In this document: positions 11,062 to 39,480 of the stretch, piece after piece | Position numbering within the stretch: position 1 is the stretch's first letter | Layout: every line of letters starts with the position of its first letter | Assembly: GCA_020629005.1 (NCBI GenBank) | Contig: JAHDEE010000036.1 | Span: 1-39,597, forward strand | DNA from: Chitinophagales bacterium | Lineage (GTDB): Bacteria > Bacteroidota > Bacteroidia > Chitinophagales > UBA2359 | Reading direction: 5' to 3' | Length of the DNA stretch: 39,597 nt | Notes under the pieces: generated by a model | The model's database searches: none | Told to the model about the DNA's origin: nothing | The model's input: the letters and a program-made list of their open reading frames with translations, nothing else | Position numbers and translations under genes: made by a program

Positions 11062-12615
11062 CTACTTGTTGCGCAGCTTTACAACAGGAATGATCATCTC
11101 TTCCAAACTGATTCCCCCGTGCTGGAAGGTGTTTCGGAAGTAATTGACGTAGTAATTGTAGTTGTTGGGATAGACAAAGAAGAGGTCACGCTTAGCAAAG
11201 ATATAGCTGGAGCTCACATTGGAGCTTGGAAGCCCTATTTCCTTAGGGTTTCTAGTGCTTAGCACATCCTTTTCATCAAATTTGAGGTTCTTACCCAGCT
11301 TGTAACGCAAATTGGTGCTGGTATTCTTGTCGCCAACTACCTTGACAGGATTTTGTACTCTGGTAGTTCCATGATCCGTCGTAATGACCACATTGATGTC
11401 CTGCTTCTCAGCAAGTTTTTTCAATCCCTCCCAGAGCGGCGAATGCTCAAACCAGGACTTGGTGATCGACCGATAAGCGGTTTCATCACTGGCCAGCTCC
11501 TTTAGCACTTCCATCTCTGTTCTGGCATGACTCAACATATCCACAAAGTTGTAGACAATCACATTCAACTGATTTTGCAGCATGTTGTGAATGTTATCAG
11601 CCATCTGCTTTGCATAGTAATGGTTCGTAACTTTAGTATAGCTGGTTCTGATATCGTAACCCAGTCGCTTCAATTGTTCATTCAGCAGGAATTCTTCGTT
11701 TAGGTTTTTGCCGCCTTCCTGATCATCATTTAGCCACTTGTCCGGATACTTTTTGGAAATCTCGTACGGTGTTAGCCCTGCAAAGATGGCATTACGGCTA
11801 TACTGGGTTGAAGTTGGAAGTATGCTACAATAGGTATCTTCTTCCACGGTCTTGAAGGCTTCTCCCATCACCGATTGAATAACTTTCCACTGATCCCATC
11901 TTAGATTGTCGATGACCAGCAGGAAGTTCGGAATATCACTTTCCATCAGCGGAATCAGCTTTTGCTGAAAGAGTTGATGCGACATCACCGGGCCTTCGCC
12001 CTCACCCTGAAGCCACTTCTTGTAATTCTTGACTACAAACTTTGACCATTCATTATTGGCCTCGTTTTTTTGCATGGAAATGATCTCTTGCATTTCCTTA
12101 GTCTTGGCATTGTCCAACTCCAGCTCCCAGTAGGTGATCTTCTTGAAGATGTCTTCCCATTCGGCATAGTTGGGTCCCATAGAGATAGCACCAAAGATCT
12201 TGTTGAACTGTTGCTGGTAGCTTGAAGTGGTTTTTTCACTGACTAAGCGAGTGTTGTCAATGATCTTTTTAAGCGTCAGCAGGATTTGGTTGGGGTTTAC
12301 AGGCTTGATAAGGTAATCGGTGATTTGCGAACCGATAGCCTCTTCCATTATATTTTCTGCCTCATTTTTAGTGATCATTACTATGGGCAGATTGCTATGT
12401 ATTTCTTTGATCTGTGTTAGTGTTTCCAGACCGGATAGACCCGGCATAGACTCGTCCAGAAAGACTACATCAGGAGTCTCGTCCTTGCATTGCTCAATGG
12501 CATCATGTCCGTTGGCAACTGTTGCGACATCATATCCTTTCTGCTCCAGAAACATGATCTGTGGCTTCAGCAATTCGATTTCGTCGTCGGCCCACAGGAT
12601 TTTTACTTTGTTCAT
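11062..12615 (-). CDS. porX: PorX-type response regulator with PglZ phosphatase domain
   Basis: PorX is the two-component effector linked to the type IX secretion system; with the PorY kinase and SigP it controls T9SS genes in Porphyromonas, and its PglZ domain is reported to cleave oligonucleotides. The 517-residue protein has an N-terminal receiver domain (1-120) with acidic residues D10/D11, phosphoacceptor D54 in VFLDESMPG, and K in LIKPVN. A helical linker follows. The alkaline phosphatase-like PglZ domain (about 200-510) shows LLVIDNLRWDQW, the nucleophile region PTSTQYSRNAIFAGL, TTDHGTTR and FQHGGISLEEM, consistent with two zinc sites. It starts a minus-strand run with tsaE, ald and surE, and is divergent from the HD gene. 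No porY is present. Confidence 0.94.
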   Translation of the reverse strand: MNKVKILWADDEIELLKPQIMFLEQKGYDVATVANGHDAIEQCKDETPDVVFLDESMPGLSGLETLTQIKEIHSNLPIVMITKNEAENIMEEAIGSQITDYLIKPVNPNQILLTLKKIIDNTRLVSEKTTSSYQQQFNKIFGAISMGPNYAEWEDIFKKITYWELELDNAKTKEMQEIISMQKNEANNEWSKFVVKNYKKWLQGEGEGPVMSHQLFQQKLIPLMESDIPNFLLVIDNLRWDQWKVIQSVMGEAFKTVEEDTYCSILPTSTQYSRNAIFAGLTPYEISKKYPDKWLNDDQEGGKNLNEEFLLNEQLKRLGYDIRTSYTKVTNHYYAKQMADNIHNMLQNQLNVIVYNFVDMLSHARTEMEVLKELASDETAYRSITKSWFEHSPLWEGLKKLAEKQDINVVITTDHGTTRVQNPVKVVGDKNTSTNLRYKLGKNLKFDEKDVLSTRNPKEIGLPSSNVSSSYIFAKRDLFFVYPNNYNYYVNYFRNTFQHGGISLEEMIIPVVKLRNK

Positions 12616-24389: not shown

Positions 24390-25838
24390 CTAGCGAGTTC
24401 TTTCGTAATAACTGTACTCTAATATCAATCGCTCATCTAGCATATTGAGTTTCCTGGCAGCTGCAGATGGCAGTTGCATAGCAATATCTTTGTATTCGTC
24501 TGTGTCCGGGAGCCTTCCGATAACTTTCACGTAGATTACTTTTCCATTGACTGGATTGCGGACCTTCATGATCGTGTGCATTTGTGCGTCTTTGTGCAAG
24601 GCATACAGGCTTTCTCCTGCCGAATTATCACCTTTATACCAGGTTGCTATTCCTTTGCCCTTCATGTAGACATATTTACCACTGATATCATTTTCGGCAT
24701 CCGTGTACTTCTTGTAATTGCTGGCTCCACTTCGTGCTGAAGTTGGAGCTGGATTCCGCACTGTTGCAGGAGGATAGTTAGCAGCTCTTGCGGTAGAAGC
24801 ATTGCTTCCCGCGTAAGTTTCTCCTCCCAGAGGAATGCCAGGTTTGAGCACAATCTTCTGGCCCAGGGCAATGCTGTTGCTACTCATTCGATTCCATGCT
24901 TTTAGGTCTTCAAGTTCTAGACCGTACATTCTTCCGATTCTCCAAAGCGTTTCTCCTTGCTGGACTATGTGATAGTCCTTTCGAACGTAGGTATTGCTAC
25001 CAGCGGGAGTGCTCCTGGTGACTGTTGCCTCGCCAAGAGCAGGTTCCGTTTGGCTGATCGCAGGATTAGTGGTTGTGGTTGTAATTGTCGTAACTGTTGT
25101 GCCTCCTTGCCTGATCGTCTTGGTCTGACTTTGAGGGGATTGGTATTCCGGACCATCAAAGAAGGTAGGACGACTGTCATAGGTCGGGTTTCGGGGTTGC
25201 ACAGGTGTTTGTGTCGGTGCAGCTTTAACTGGTTCCTTGCGAACTGGTGCCGGCGTGTTTATGGGAGTCGGATTGCTTTGCTCTGCTGCTTTAACAGGCT
25301 GACTTGTAGTGCCGTGGCCGACGATGATTCTTTGTCCAACGGTGATATTGTTTGGGTCAAGGTCGTTCCAAGAGAGGATTTCGCCAAGTGTGTGGCCGTA
25401 TCTTCTGGCTAGCGAGTACAATGTTTCTCCTTCTGCGATCGTGTGGTATATGGCACCACTAACAGCTGGTGCTGCATTTCCAGGATTGGCCTTTCCAGGG
25501 CTTGTTTGATTTGCTGGAGGGTGGTAGATGGCTCTACTGTCTTTTAGTCCGGGAATGGAAAGCAAATCCCCTTCTTTGATCGTGTTGTTGACTACCTTAC
25601 CTGGATTTGCCGCAATGATATCTTGAACGCTGCAATTGTATTTGCGGGAAATGGCATAGAGGGTTTCTCCGGCCTGAACTCGATGCTGTTTTTGCGACTC
25701 CTGCCCATAGGTGCTACTCGCCATCAGGGTTTTGGATTCATCCAGAGTGATTGATCTTCCTGAGTCGCCGTAAATCGTTTGTCCATCCACGTAGAATGCA
25801 GCGGTGACCCCAAATACAAAGCACAGAAACTTCTTCAT
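24390..25838 (-). CDS. LysM x3 protein with RlpA-like C-terminal domain (paralog 1)
   Basis: A 482-residue exported protein. The signal peptide is MKKFLCFVFGVTAAFYVDG. LysM peptidoglycan-binding modules lie at about 52-97, 131-175 and 289-334, each with the GETLY/GETLW core. Linkers are rich in Pro, Thr, Ala and Gln. The C-terminal domain (about 385-480) resembles the double-psi beta-barrel of RlpA, with GIATWYKG and the NPVNGKVIYVKV strand. The position of the RlpA catalytic Asp (DRGP) reads GRLP, so lytic transglycosylase activity is doubtful. A strong Shine-Dalgarno AGGAGG lies seven bases before the ATG. A paralog with two LysM modules is next upstream. Confidence 0.9.
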   Translation of the reverse strand: MKKFLCFVFGVTAAFYVDGQTIYGDSGRSITLDESKTLMASSTYGQESQKQHRVQAGETLYAISRKYNCSVQDIIAANPGKVVNNTIKEGDLLSIPGLKDSRAIYHPPANQTSPGKANPGNAAPAVSGAIYHTIAEGETLYSLARRYGHTLGEILSWNDLDPNNITVGQRIIVGHGTTSQPVKAAEQSNPTPINTPAPVRKEPVKAAPTQTPVQPRNPTYDSRPTFFDGPEYQSPQSQTKTIRQGGTTVTTITTTTTNPAISQTEPALGEATVTRSTPAGSNTYVRKDYHIVQQGETLWRIGRMYGLELEDLKAWNRMSSNSIALGQKIVLKPGIPLGGETYAGSNASTARAANYPPATVRNPAPTSARSGASNYKKYTDAENDISGKYVYMKGKGIATWYKGDNSAGESLYALHKDAQMHTIMKVRNPVNGKVIYVKVIGRLPDTDEYKDIAMQLPSAAARKLNMLDERLILEYSYYERTR

Positions 25839-26139: not shown

Positions 26140-27087
26140 CTACTTGTAAAAGCTGTATTCCAGAATCAGGCGCTCATCCAGCATGTTGAGCTTCTTGGCA
26201 GTTGCTGGGGCAAGTAGCATGGTCACATCTTCGTATTCATCAGTATCCGGAAGTTCTCCCAGGACCTTAACGTAGATTACTCTGCCGTTTACTGGGTTTC
26301 GGACTCGCATTATGGAGTGCATAGGAGCATCTTTATGCAGGGCATAGAGGTTTTCGTTGCTATCTCCGTTATTGGGGCTCCAGGTGGCTACTCCTTTTCC
26401 TTTGACTAAAGTAAACAAGCCTTTTGGGGCATTTTGTGCTTGTATATATTGAGAGTAATTGCTTCCTGTGCGGAAGTGATTAAAGTTCTTGAAGGATTTG
26501 TCTACTTCCGTTGCGACTTCGGTGGCTTCAATTTTGGATTCTGTCAAAGAGGAGTGTTTGTCGCTGATTATTGGAGAGGATGCTATTTCTGCCTCTGATA
26601 CAAAAATAGTCTTTCCAACAGGCAATTCTTCTGGCTCCAATTGATTCCACAGAATAATCTGTTGCTCAGACAAGCGATATTGCATGGCAAGCGAATAGAG
26701 TGTCTCCCCTGCTTGCACAAGATGCGTTTTTCTAGTCTCCGTGGGTAGCTCAAGATCGGCAGTTTCGAATGGTTCACCGATTTTCAAGATCCCACTTGTG
26801 TTATTTGTTTCATCGTCTGGAATCGTGAGCACGGATCCGACCACGATAGTGTTGTTTTTCACCTTTCTTGGATTCGCAGCACGTATAGACTCCACCGTAC
26901 AATTATATCGCCGTGAGATGGCATATAAAGTCTCACCGGCCTCAACTTTATGTTTGAGCCCAGTGCTAGTCACCTCGCTTACAGCAACTTCAGAAGCAAC
27001 CAGGGATTGGATCGAGAACCACATTTGGCCTTGCAGGTTGGCAAGTATTAGCAGAGCGCAGAATGCGCAGCATATCTTCTTTTTCAT
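26140..27087 (-). CDS. LysM x2 protein with RlpA-like C-terminal domain (paralog 2)
   Basis: A 315-residue exported paralog of the neighbouring 482-residue protein. The signal peptide is MKKKICCAFCALLILANLQG. LysM modules lie at about 46-90 and 121-164, and the RlpA-like domain at about 220-315 reads GKGVATWSPNNGDSNENLYA, then NPVNGRVIYVKV and ERLILEYSFYK at the end. As in paralog 1, the catalytic Asp position is replaced (VLGELPD). The third LysM and the long Pro/Thr linker are absent, so the pair arose by duplication with gain or loss of a module. It should bind peptidoglycan in the periplasm. It is divergent from the NfeD gene. Confidence 0.9.
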   Translation of the reverse strand: MKKKICCAFCALLILANLQGQMWFSIQSLVASEVAVSEVTSTGLKHKVEAGETLYAISRRYNCTVESIRAANPRKVKNNTIVVGSVLTIPDDETNNTSGILKIGEPFETADLELPTETRKTHLVQAGETLYSLAMQYRLSEQQIILWNQLEPEELPVGKTIFVSEAEIASSPIISDKHSSLTESKIEATEVATEVDKSFKNFNHFRTGSNYSQYIQAQNAPKGLFTLVKGKGVATWSPNNGDSNENLYALHKDAPMHSIMRVRNPVNGRVIYVKVLGELPDTDEYEDVTMLLAPATAKKLNMLDERLILEYSFYK

Positions 27088-36038: not shown

Positions 36039-36609
36039 AGGGGGACTTTGCCAGAGAGAAATTGGTATTGGAGAGCTTTTTGCTCTATTTTAGCAGTAGG
36101 CATCAAACCAACAGGGCAAATGTCTTGTTGTGCAGGTGTCACGGGACTTGTTAAGATAGTGTTAATTGTGGCCACTACAGAATTGAATTGATGCTGTAGT
36201 TTTGGCAAATTTTGAGATAAAAATCTTTTCTTTGTCCTGATTTTGAAGAATTTCCCGAATGAGCCCTTGGGTTTAGCGTTTTTAAGGCAGACTGCAAGCG
36301 GAAAACAAATTATGGGGAAGATGCTGGAGGAAATGAAAAAACTGATATTGTCCGACTGAATTTTGAGGGATAGAAAATAAAAATTTTGACCATAAAGGCT
36401 GCTATTCTATTTTTCTGTATTCTGTAGCCAGGTCATTAAAGATGATCTCACCTTACTCTATTGATCAATTGTCTTGATCACTTCAGTCTTAATCAAAAGA
36501 AGCTGCTTTGTTGTGGCTCTTTTTCATCCTCTTTCTTCTCTAGCTAAGCAGGCTTTAAAGCGCGATGTTAACGACCTTCGGGTGCGGATTAAACATTAAA
36601 CGCTTTTTT
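36039..36609. other. 571-base non-coding region before the RNase/CSD/LRR gene
   Basis: There is no gene here. A small hairpin AGAGC-TTTTT-GCTCT (36072-36086) followed by ATTTTAG could end pyrG transcription. Further stems are CTACAG/CTGTAG near 36174-36198 and TGATCAA/TTGATCA (36462-36480). The rest is AT-rich. If the promoter lies far upstream, this would be a long structured 5' leader of a cold-shock-domain gene. Confidence 0.5.
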
Positions 36610-39480
36610 ATGAGTGAGAGTAAGAATAACAGAAAAATTGATTTTGTTATTGATGGAACCAATGTATGTGGATGGCATGAGACCAACATATATGAAGCTG
36701 GAAACAGAGGAAACAAGACGGCAGATTTTACGCTGTTGCCTTTATTGAAATTGGTAGAGGTACTGCTAGCCAGAGGTCAGTCATTTCATTGCTGGTTTGA
36801 TGCCAGCACGCTTAATATTCTAAACGACAATGAGCAGGTCATTTATAATGAATTGCTGAAGAAGTACAACGATAATTTCTACCAAGTGATTGGCGGCATT
36901 AAAGCTGATCCTTTTGTACTTGCCTCGGCCGATAAATTTAATGCGGCCATCATTAGCAACGATAGCTTTGGAATCTATCTGGATAAATATCCATGGTTGG
37001 AACGCAACAAACAACCGCTGAGACTGTTCAAGGGCGGAAAGCCAAAACTAGGTGGTGATAATCATCTGATGGTACCGCATCTGGATATTAACGAGGTCTT
37101 GGATCAAACTGTTGAAGAGATCTATCACGGGCTTAAGTACAATATCCAATCGAGAAAGAGAGGGGTCGTCAAGACTTTCAACGAGAAGAACGGATGGGGA
37201 TTTGTGACTGGTCAGGATGGCGAAGATATCTACTTCAACAAAAAGAACATCCTGGTAAAGGAGGAAATGGATGTGGAATTTGAAATTGGTCGCAACCACA
37301 AAGGGGAGCTTTTTGCCAATAATGTAACCTTCTCCAGAGATGACATTGAGGAGATGCAGGAAAGACTGGACAAGCTGGAGCAGGAGCTAATCCTCTATAA
37401 GGTGGCAAGAAAATTCAAGGAGTCCGATAAAGTGCTCGAAGGGGAAGTCGAATGGTATGACAGAGACAAGGAGTATGGGGTGATCACCTACCAGGGCGAT
37501 AAGTCCTATTTCTTTTACGGCTCTGAGTTTAATCATGCCGAGCATGGCCCGATTCCTGGACAAAAAGTGATTTTCCAAATCGGCAAGAACAAGAAAGGTG
37601 CTTGCGCGATCAAAATTTTCCTTTATGTGGAAGATAAGCAGGTGCAGCAGGTATTTGATCGTTTGAAATCGGGAGATTCCAGCGATGGAGGTAGAGTTGG
37701 AAAATCCAAGGGTAGTAAGCAAAACTCGAGAAAGGAACGTACCAATGGTGCGCAGGCCAATGTTTCGACCAATGGTTCAGTTAGCAAGCCGGGAGCCGCT
37801 CGAGATAAAGATTCTGCCAAGCAAGACAACAAGCGTCGAGATAAGCGAGACAAACGAGACAGCCGCGAGAACCAACGCGAAAGCAGTAGGGATAATGGGC
37901 GAGATAACGGCCGTGAAAGAGATCAGGACCGAAAGTCTGATAAGCGTGATCACAAGAGTGAGAAAGGCAGACAGAAAGAACAGCCACAGAAGAAAGGAAG
38001 CGCAAAGAAGGACAACAAGCAGGAATCCGTGCAGAATTCTGCCCGAAAGGAGGAAACAGCTCAAACCAATGAGTCTTCAGTGAAAAAGGAGGGCAAGCAG
38101 GCCAAAGGAAACAGGGAAAGCAAAGCTGCCAAGCCGACAAAACAAGCCGCCCGGGCCAAGAAAGGAGAAAAAATATACCTGGGTAAAATTACCTCTCTAA
38201 AATCCGGACAAGGTAGAATTAAGCCTTCTAATGCAAAGAAGACACTTGCTTTCAAGCTTTCAGATGCATTGGAAGAAGTAGCCCCATCACTTGAGATAGG
38301 AGCTATGGTGCGCTTTCATCTTGAAATCACGGCAAAAGATATGATTCCGAAAATCATTGAGATGGTTTCGAAAGAATCAGCACCTAATACTTCTGCTGCA
38401 AAGGAAGGATCAGAAACTAAGGAAAAACAGTCCAAAGTAGAGGCAACAGACAATGCTACAAAGTCGAGCGATCGAGGCAAGAAGAAGATGCAGGAGAAAG
38501 ACGACAAACCTTCGACTGAACAAAAGAAAACGACTAGGAGCACATCCAAGTCAAAGTCTCAGGGAGAACTCGACCTTAGCACTGCAAAAGGTAGAAAGGC
38601 CTGGTGGGATGAATTGGAAGGGCAATGGAAAGTTGCGTTCAATTTTATTACGGATGGAGAAGAAGTTAAGACTACGCCTTCTGACAAAAAGCTGTCCGAA
38701 ATTCTGGAACTTACAAGGATATCCCTTAACCCTAGAGGTAGAGAACTTAAAGCGAAAGTCAGCAATCTTAGCGGACTTGCAAAGTTGAGCAAGCTTAAGT
38801 CACTGGATGTTGCCGATCAGAAGCTCAAGAATCTTCGTGGTGTTGAGAAGCTGGAAAAATTAGAGCGCATCAAGCTAAACTCCAACGAGCTCACCTCGCT
38901 TGCGGGCGTGGAAAAGTTGCCAAAACTCAAGGAGTTGCACTGCGCCTGGAATAAGATTAAGAGCATCAAGGAACTTCAGGAACTTCCAAAACTCGATCAT
39001 CTGGTTTGTGGAGGAAATTTGCTGGAATCTGTTGATGAGCTGAAGGCCCTTAGCCGTTTAAAGCGCCTTGAATGTTTCAATATCAGCCTGGATTCGCTGA
39101 AGATATTGAAAGGCTTTGAACGATTGGAACAACTCAATTGCAGCTACAATCCGATTTCTTCTTTGAAAGATATGCCTGAACTACCGGCACTGAAAAAGTT
39201 GAACATGGACTATTGTCAGCTTAGCAGCACAAGTGGAGTTCAGAAACAGAAATCGCTGGTCAAACTTGAAGTCGAATACAATGAATTAAAAGATATCAAG
39301 GGACTCGATAAGCTGGAAAATCTGACACATTTCAATTGCAGCAGCAATAAACTCACTTACAAGCAATTGCAGGGTTTGAAAAAAGTGCCTTCTCTGACCA
39401 ACTTGAGTGCTAAAGAAAACAAACTCAAAGACGATCAACAGGAGAAGCTCCAGGAGATGTTGAAAGATGCGGTGAGCTAG
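36610..39480 (+). CDS. Regnase-like RNase + cold-shock domains + LRR protein
   Basis: A 956-residue cytoplasmic protein of unusual architecture. Residues 8-165 match the Zc3h12a/NYN (PIN-like) RNase fold: D15 in VIDGTNVCGW, D64 in CWFDAST, D100 in KADPFVLASAD and D118 in ISNDSF supply the acidic metal site. Two cold-shock-like OB domains follow, about 183-240 (GWGFVT, DIYFN) and 277-340 (YGVITY, SYFFYG), separated by a helical segment. A Lys/Arg/Asp/Ser-rich disordered linker (355-515) leads to a third OB-like domain (about 518-585), another charged linker, then KAWWDELEGQW (about 663-673) and some ten leucine-rich repeats of 20-22 residues to the end. ATG 36610 is preferred to 36565. Likely role: RNA binding and cleavage with LRR-guided protein contacts (inference). 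Confidence 0.85.
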   Translation: MSESKNNRKIDFVIDGTNVCGWHETNIYEAGNRGNKTADFTLLPLLKLVEVLLARGQSFHCWFDASTLNILNDNEQVIYNELLKKYNDNFYQVIGGIKADPFVLASADKFNAAIISNDSFGIYLDKYPWLERNKQPLRLFKGGKPKLGGDNHLMVPHLDINEVLDQTVEEIYHGLKYNIQSRKRGVVKTFNEKNGWGFVTGQDGEDIYFNKKNILVKEEMDVEFEIGRNHKGELFANNVTFSRDDIEEMQERLDKLEQELILYKVARKFKESDKVLEGEVEWYDRDKEYGVITYQGDKSYFFYGSEFNHAEHGPIPGQKVIFQIGKNKKGACAIKIFLYVEDKQVQQVFDRLKSGDSSDGGRVGKSKGSKQNSRKERTNGAQANVSTNGSVSKPGAARDKDSAKQDNKRRDKRDKRDSRENQRESSRDNGRDNGRERDQDRKSDKRDHKSEKGRQKEQPQKKGSAKKDNKQESVQNSARKEETAQTNESSVKKEGKQAKGNRESKAAKPTKQAARAKKGEKIYLGKITSLKSGQGRIKPSNAKKTLAFKLSDALEEVAPSLEIGAMVRFHLEITAKDMIPKIIEMVSKESAPNTSAAKEGSETKEKQSKVEATDNATKSSDRGKKKMQEKDDKPSTEQKKTTRSTSKSKSQGELDLSTAKGRKAWWDELEGQWKVAFNFITDGEEVKTTPSDKKLSEILELTRISLNPRGRELKAKVSNLSGLAKLSKLKSLDVADQKLKNLRGVEKLEKLERIKLNSNELTSLAGVEKLPKLKELHCAWNKIKSIKELQELPKLDHLVCGGNLLESVDELKALSRLKRLECFNISLDSLKILKGFERLEQLNCSYNPISSLKDMPELPALKKLNMDYCQLSSTSGVQKQKSLVKLEVEYNELKDIKGLDKLENLTHFNCSSNKLTYKQLQGLKKVPSLTNLSAKENKLKDDQQEKLQEMLKDAVS

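What the first reader, a model, noticed from the sequence alone, without database searches (positions are those of the whole stretch)
36610..39480. RNase-CSD-LRR fusion protein
A Regnase/NYN-type nuclease domain with its acidic residues kept is fused to two or three cold-shock-like OB domains, a long charged disordered linker and about ten leucine-rich repeats introduced by a WWDELEGQW motif. The combination suggests an RNA-degrading factor that binds RNA, may condense through its charged linker, and is targeted by the LRR. I do not recall a characterised protein of this layout.
Basis: partly seen in the sequence, partly recalled or inferred. Interest (0 to 1): 0.75.

Follow-up and report, generated by a model that had tools for sequence, protein, structure and literature searches.

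The report
Lineage-specific RNA-cutting protein with adaptors
A family of bacteria related to Chitinophaga carries, in nearly every genome examined, a large undescribed protein that joins a predicted RNA-cutting domain like that of the animal immune regulator Regnase to RNA-gripping cold-shock domains and a protein-docking repeat, which points to an unstudied RNA-decay factor.

Summary
[quoted passage not shown] It is neither a one-off nor an assembly artefact. Homologues occur in 18 of 20 genomes of the same GTDB family and in none of 378 other genomes sampled from the order. Eight relatives elsewhere in the phylum share the NYN domain, but none has a CSD. All 20 NYN domains keep D15, N18, D64 and D100, and 19 keep D118; D15, D100 and D118 align with Regnase D141, D226 and D244. 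The NYN domain is 98% identical to the nearest relative while synonymous sites are saturated. The C-terminus is variable: LRR, another domain, or Lys- or Gln-rich tails. WWDELEGQW is the N-cap of the LRR and occurs in other LRR proteins. The gene stands alone; no mobile or viral copy was found. RNase Y and RNase E/G are kept in the lineage, so it is an addition. Most likely it is a single-strand-specific endoribonuclease in cellular RNA turnover, with CSDs gripping RNA and the C-terminus recruiting partners. Activity, substrate and partner are not shown.

The parts
36610..39480 (+). whole gene, 956 aa plus stop: NYN-CSD1-CSD2-linker-CSD3-linker-WW cap-LRR
   Evidence: homologues with the same order
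36631..37119 (+). Zc3h12a/Regnase-type NYN (PIN-like) nuclease domain, residues 8-170
   Evidence: Pfam PF11977 in 20 of 20 members; profile hits Regnase-1 3v32, E 7e-6
36652..36663 (+). active-site motif D15-x-x-N18 (aligned with Regnase-1 D141 and N144)
   Evidence: D and N invariant in 20 of 20; alignment to 3v32
36799..36801 (+). D64 of the FDA motif, invariant
   Evidence: 20 of 20
36907..36909 (+). D100 (aligned with Regnase-1 D226)
   Evidence: 20 of 20; role of D226/D244 in PMC4772114
36961..36963 (+). D118 of the ISND motif (aligned with Regnase-1 D244)
   Evidence: 19 of 20, N in paralogue G005b
37150..37338 (+). cold-shock domain 1, residues 181-243, aromatic RNP-like residues W196, F198, Y208, F209
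   Evidence: Pfam CSD
37339..37425 (+). short linker between CSD1 and CSD2, residues 244-272; predicted helical in a low-confidence model
37432..37629 (+). cold-shock domain 2, residues 275-340
   Evidence: Pfam CSD best stretch 277-336
37630..38154 (+). charged disordered linker 1, residues 341-515, net basic, fast evolving
   Evidence: composition; 41% identity to nearest relative
38155..38379 (+). third, degenerate cold-shock domain, residues 516-590
   Evidence: hhalign 97% probability to CSD1 and 96.7% to CSD2; 83% identity to nearest relative between variable linkers
38380..38553 (+). charged disordered linker 2, residues 591-648
   Evidence: 21% identity to nearest relative
38554..38715 (+). 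WW cap of the LRR domain, residues 649-702, with WWDELEGQW at 665-673
   Evidence: same module precedes LRRs in other proteins of the lineage; helix at 659-673 in the model
38716..39477 (+). leucine-rich-repeat solenoid, residues 703-956, about 11 strands
   Evidence: Pfam LRR_4 E 4e-23; model pLDDT 82; Foldseek to SDS22 and internalins, E 2e-11 to 1e-10
36200..36382 (.). conserved non-coding block upstream of the gene, possible promoter or leader
   Evidence: 70% DNA identity to the nearest relative, E 4e-12, where synonymous sites are saturated

Best explanation
It is a chromosomal, lineage-specific endoribonuclease of general RNA metabolism. The N-terminal NYN domain holds metal ions with D15, D100 and D118 (perhaps D64) and cuts single-stranded RNA internally. 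The CSDs next to it grip single-stranded or unwound RNA and feed it to the active site. The long charged linker is a flexible tether, and the variable C-terminus (in this species a WW-capped LRR solenoid) docks the enzyme on a partner, perhaps a degradosome or ribosome component. Shown here: domain order, conserved catalytic residues, purifying selection, wide retention in one family, no mobile context found. Inferred: cleavage, RNA preference, docking and cellular role.
For: Profile match to Regnase-1 structures, E 7e-6, and PF11977 in 20 of 20 members. D15, N18, D64 and D100 in 20 of 20, D118 in 19 of 20; D226N/D244N, the aligned Regnase residues, make the catalytically inactive mutant of Regnase-1 (PMC4772114). 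A Bacteroides NYN protein is a Mn-dependent, non-specific ssRNA endonuclease (PMC11346440). Two CSDs in all complete members. NYN 98% identical at saturated synonymous sites (pS 0.87, pN 0.03), against 21-41% identity for the linkers. Present in 18 of 20 family genomes, mostly single-copy; no conserved neighbours beyond close relatives; no plasmid, phage or viral-contig relative found; only a CSD hit among defence models.
Against: No activity data. The structure of the NYN part could not be modelled with confidence. The Ala at position 99 means that Regnase D225, the first of its DD pair, has no aligned acid here, although 12 of 20 members (not this one) have a second acid at position 101. CSD3 has lost the aromatic RNP residues. 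The partner of the LRR is unknown, and the LRR is not kept in all members.
Confidence: 0.62

Rival explanations
1. An anti-phage or conflict RNase: an effector that degrades RNA upon infection, with the LRR as sensor.
For: NYN nucleases and LRR sensors both occur in conflict systems; a CSD model of the defence library matches the CSD part; a Bacteroides NYN nuclease sits in a type III CRISPR locus.
Against: Kept in 18 of 20 genomes of the family, usually once, without conserved neighbours; no sign of horizontal spread to plasmids, phages or other families of the order; the LRR, the would-be sensor, is missing in three sublineages.
Confidence: 0.13
2. A pseudo-nuclease: an RNA-binding protein (RNA chaperone or translation regulator) whose NYN domain binds but no longer cuts RNA.
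For: The acid aligned with Regnase D225 is missing in the family and position 101 is Pro here; paralogue G005b has N at position 118, so loss of activity can happen in this family; inactive relatives exist among PIN/RNase II proteins (DIS3L, PMC4598762; Ssd1, PMC8934651).
Against: The four acids and the Asn are invariant apart from the one paralogue; strong constraint on the NYN domain.
Confidence: 0.15
3. A maturation nuclease for a specific stable RNA (rRNA, tRNA or a leader RNA) rather than a decay factor.
For: Housekeeping-like retention in the family; other NYN-type enzymes process tRNA or crRNA (PRORP, general knowledge; B. fragilis NYN).
Against: Absent from 378 other genomes of the order, so the substrate would have to be processed otherwise there; CSDs and the disordered linker suggest broad ssRNA binding.
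Confidence: 0.1

Closest known systems
Regnase-1/ZC3H12A (MCPIP) endoribonucleases
   Same: NYN nuclease domain with D141, D226 and D244 counterparts and the SND-x-(F/Y) motif; nuclease joined to RNA-binding and protein-interaction modules
   Different: CSDs in place of the CCCH zinc finger, no UBA-like N-terminal domain detected, LRR C-terminus, bacterial; distant sequence relationship (E about 1e-5 to the profile)
Rrp44/DIS3 N-terminal half (PIN-CSD1-CSD2)
   Same: A PIN-type endonuclease directly followed by two CSDs that bind RNA
   Different: No RNB exonuclease, S1 or CR3 motif found; the nuclease is of the NYN/Zc3h12a branch; likely convergent
MARF1, KHNYN, N4BP1 (NYN plus RNA-binding adaptor proteins)
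   Same: NYN endonuclease whose specificity comes from attached adaptor domains
   Different: Adaptors are RRM/LOTUS or KH domains; eukaryotic
Bacteroides fragilis CRISPR-associated NYN and Bacillus Rae1/YacP
   Same: Bacterial NYN ribonucleases
   Different: No CSD or LRR described; the first lies in a cas locus, the second acts on ribosomes; the YacP Pfam model gives only weak hits in 2 of 20 members
Other Zc3h12a-type NYN proteins of Bacteroidota (L082-L089)
   Same: Nuclease domain found by the same profile
   Different: Fused to DnaJ-type zinc ribbons, coiled coils or an unassigned N-terminal region; no CSD and no LRR

Membership tests
RNase_Zc3h12a (PF11977) NYN domain superfamily | match to the domain profile | tested here: met
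   20 of 20 family members match at E below 1, best 1.7e-8; 12 of 61 relatives' genomes over the cut-off; the window copy alone is just under the curated cut-off (21.5 against 23 bits)
RNase_Zc3h12a (PF11977) NYN domain superfamily | conserved catalytic acids | tested here: met
   D15, D64, D100 in 20 of 20, D118 in 19 of 20
RNase_Zc3h12a (PF11977) NYN domain superfamily | PIN-like fold | tested here: inconclusive
   model with two sequences, pLDDT 37
RNase_Zc3h12a (PF11977) NYN domain superfamily | metal-dependent endoribonuclease activity | not testable with these tools
   needs purified protein
Regnase (ZC3H12A-D) proteins | CCCH zinc finger next to the nuclease domain | tested here: not met
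   no such Pfam match; CSDs follow the NYN domain
Rrp44/DIS3 (RNase II family) | RNB and S1 domains | tested here: not met
   none in Pfam scan of 19 members
YacP/Rae1 | NYN_YacP profile (PF05991) | tested here: not met
   only 2 of 20 members, best E 0.07
Cold-shock domain proteins | CSD profile | tested here: met
   19 of 19 members scanned; two domains in the window protein
Cold-shock domain proteins | aromatic RNP1/RNP2 residues for nucleic-acid stacking | tested here: inconclusive
   largely kept in CSD1 and partly in CSD2 of the window protein, lost in CSD3, variable between members
Leucine-rich-repeat proteins (SDS22-like) | LRR solenoid | tested here: met
   Pfam E 4e-23, model pLDDT 82, Foldseek E 2e-11 to SDS22
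Secreted internalin-type LRR proteins | secretion signal | not tested
   no signal-peptide program run; the N-terminus as read (MSESKNNRKIDFVIDG) is not a typical signal peptide
CRISPR-associated NYN | location in a type III cas locus | tested here: not met
   neighbours compared across loci show no conserved partner; the window's large ORFs read include no recognisable cas gene (read by eye, no family search)

The most novel reading that the evidence does not exclude
One bacterial family has built its own Regnase/Rrp44-like decay factor: an NYN endonuclease on a CSD platform that, through exchangeable C-terminal docking modules and a charged linker, nucleates a second mRNA-decay assembly beside the RNase E/G and RNase Y machinery.
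Probability: 0.25. Interest if true: 0.75.

Novelty: new variant of a known kind. Interest (0 to 1): 0.52.

Why it matters
Among the 61 nearest genomes, PF11977 nucleases occur only in this family, and of 14 well-known control genomes only one, an archaeon, has one. A whole bacterial family that retains one fused to cold-shock domains would be a bacterial parallel to eukaryotic mRNA-silencing nucleases (Regnase, MARF1, KHNYN). It would add an unstudied endonuclease to RNA turnover in Bacteroidota, and it offers a natural set of C-terminal swaps for testing how such enzymes are targeted.

Tried and rejected
Conserved operon partner: none beyond pyrG in the sister genome. Replacement of a core RNase: rejected, RNase Y is found in all 20 family genomes (in fragments in one) and RNase E/G in 16 (the four without it are all under 90% complete). 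Mobile or viral origin: no matches. WW motif as a dedicated targeting signal: rejected, it is a general LRR cap in this lineage. Rfam for the upstream block: nothing credible. Literature for an NYN-CSD protein: none found. Truncated pyrG in the sister genome: an assembly gap of Ns.

Full report
What is there. Window 36610-39480 on the + strand is one open reading frame of 956 codons. The ATG at 36610 is the start: the longer ORF from 36565 is not supported by the sister genome, where the open frame begins only five codons before the same ATG. Upstream lie 571 bases and then pyrG (CTP synthase, named from its sequence); downstream the contig ends after 117 bases. The gene is the only strong match of its kind in its genome; the other matches in the genome are LRR stretches only.

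Domain anatomy. Pfam gives two cold-shock domains (E 3e-16) and a leucine-rich-repeat region (E 4e-23), and a sub-threshold match to the Zc3h12a-type NYN nuclease (E 0.006). Homologues were used to strengthen the last one. In 20 family sequences the isolated domain matches PF11977 every time, best 1.7e-8. The family profile (A1) finds the crystal structures of Regnase-1 at 7e-6, then ZC3H12B, ZC3H12C and KHNYN. More distant relatives picked up by the same profile score PF11977 at up to 5e-15. The alignment places D15, N18, D100 and D118 on Regnase D141, N144, D226 and D244. D15, N18, D64 and D100 are invariant in 20 sequences and D118 is kept in 19. In Regnase-1 the D226N/D244N double mutant is catalytically inactive and D225 and D226 are named catalytic (PMC4772114). 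The acid at D225 is not matched here (Ala 99); 12 of 20 relatives have a second acid at position 101, where the window protein has Pro. A two-sequence AlphaFold model of residues 1-350 had pLDDT 37 and decides nothing.

CSDs. CSD1 (181-243) and CSD2 (275-340) are clear. A third OB-like segment at 516-590, missed by Pfam in this protein, aligns with the third CSD of relatives (Pfam E 5e-6 in G010) and with CSD1 and CSD2 in profile comparison (97.1% and 96.7% probability). It has lost the aromatic residues used for stacking, so it is probably not a strong nucleic-acid binder.

Linker and C-terminus. Between CSD2 and the WW motif lie 304 residues (CSD3 included), 42% of them charged and net basic. 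Against the sister genome the NYN domain is 98% identical although synonymous sites are saturated (pS 0.87, pN 0.03), CSD1 and CSD2 are 94-95% identical, the linkers 41% and 21%, and the LRR 74%. The protein is therefore under strong selection in its N-terminal half, and its linkers are kept only in character. Two second-copy paralogues (G005b, G006b) have acidic linkers, and one of them has N in place of D118. The LRR part folds confidently (pLDDT 82, pTM 0.79), shows about 11 strands and resembles SDS22 and internalins. WWDELEGQW lies in the capping helix before the first repeat (residues 659-673). The same module stands before LRRs in unrelated proteins of this lineage, including stand-alone LRR proteins and double-kinase LRR proteins, so it is an LRR cap and not a special signal.

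Family and distribution. A search of 100 relatives and then of 398 genomes of the order found the NYN family in 18 of 20 genomes of the same GTDB family and in none of the other 378. A further 395 genomes drawn from the class and 395 from the phylum gave only eight more hits in total, apart from the window's own genome. These eight proteins join the NYN domain to other parts (DnaJ-type zinc ribbons, coiled coils, an unassigned N-terminal region) and have no CSD. The NYN-CSD-CSD core is thus, within the genomes sampled, a trait of one family. One named member is MAG JAHDDV010000197.1, labelled Chitinophagales bacterium. A tree splits the core into two well-supported groups. WW-LRR C-termini are found in both, while other lineages carry a different C-terminal domain (G004, G017, G019), Lys-rich tails (G010, G014) or a Gln-rich tail (G002).

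Context. No gene is a conserved neighbour outside pairs or trios of close relatives. There is no match on plasmids, in phages or in viral contigs. RNase Y is found in all 20 genomes of the family (in fragments in one) and RNase E/G in 16, the other four being assemblies under 90% complete; the protein is therefore an addition to the usual RNA-decay enzymes and not a substitute. The non-coding block 36200-36382 is 70% identical to the sister genome (E 4e-12) despite synonymous saturation, which suggests a conserved promoter or leader; Rfam gives nothing credible.

Mechanism. The most economical reading is an endoribonuclease in which the NYN domain cuts single-stranded RNA with metal ions, as the characterised members of the superfamily do (B. 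fragilis NYN is a Mn-dependent, sequence-non-specific ssRNA endonuclease, PMC11346440; MARF1, PMC6294520). The CSDs supply RNA affinity and the exchangeable C-terminus supplies docking. The layout PIN-CSD-CSD is also that of the N-terminal half of Rrp44/DIS3 (PMC4598762), where a PIN endonuclease cuts single-stranded RNA and CSDs bind it; this is a likeness in working, since the RNB and S1 domains of that family are absent. A defence role is less likely because of the wide retention, the lone position and the absence of spread. A non-cutting RNA-binding role cannot be excluded without an assay.

Novelty. I found no description of an NYN-CSD protein in the papers searched (the library holds open-licence papers only, so this is weak evidence of absence). 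Each part is known and the principle (NYN nuclease plus RNA-binding adaptor) is known. The combination, its bacterial family-wide retention and its exchangeable C-terminus are the new elements, hence a new variant of a known kind.

Limits. Activity, structure of the nuclease part, RNA targets, partners and essentiality are untested. Most family members look like fragmented assemblies of 61-100% completeness, so the absences in G008 and G013 may be real or gaps. Fusions outside Bacteroidota were not surveyed. Gene names given for window neighbours rest on reading the translations.

Noticed in passing
window 36200-36382: Non-coding block upstream of the gene, 70% identical to the sister genome although synonymous sites are saturated; possible promoter or regulatory leader.
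   Followed up: partly
L060 9956-11773 and L059 208-3258: Second copies of the NYN-CSD protein in two genomes have acidic instead of basic linkers, and the one in L060 has N in place of the D118-type catalytic acid, so it may be a regulatory pseudo-enzyme.
   Followed up: partly
L113-L121 (whole loci): The WW cap module precedes LRRs in double-kinase LRR, TPR-like LRR and stand-alone LRR proteins of the same family; it looks like an unnamed LRR N-cap domain.
   Followed up: partly
L043 4869-7004, L044 5652-8153, L046 5167-7473: These relatives carry a different conserved C-terminal domain (YWAKD...RTFP...) without a confident Pfam match in place of the LRR.
   Followed up: no
L083-L087: Scattered Bacteroidota proteins of about 480 aa end in a strong PF11977 nuclease domain (E 1e-12 to 5e-15) after an N-terminal region of about 330 aa with GF-rich repeats that matches no confident Pfam family.
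   Followed up: partly
window 24390-25838 and 26140-27087: Two neighbouring minus-strand LysM-like proteins share a closely similar C-terminal domain, apparently a tandem duplication.
   Followed up: no
window 11062-12615: Response-regulator protein with a C-terminal alkaline-phosphatase-like region that resembles PorX, a regulator of type IX secretion (read from the sequence, not searched).
   Followed up: no
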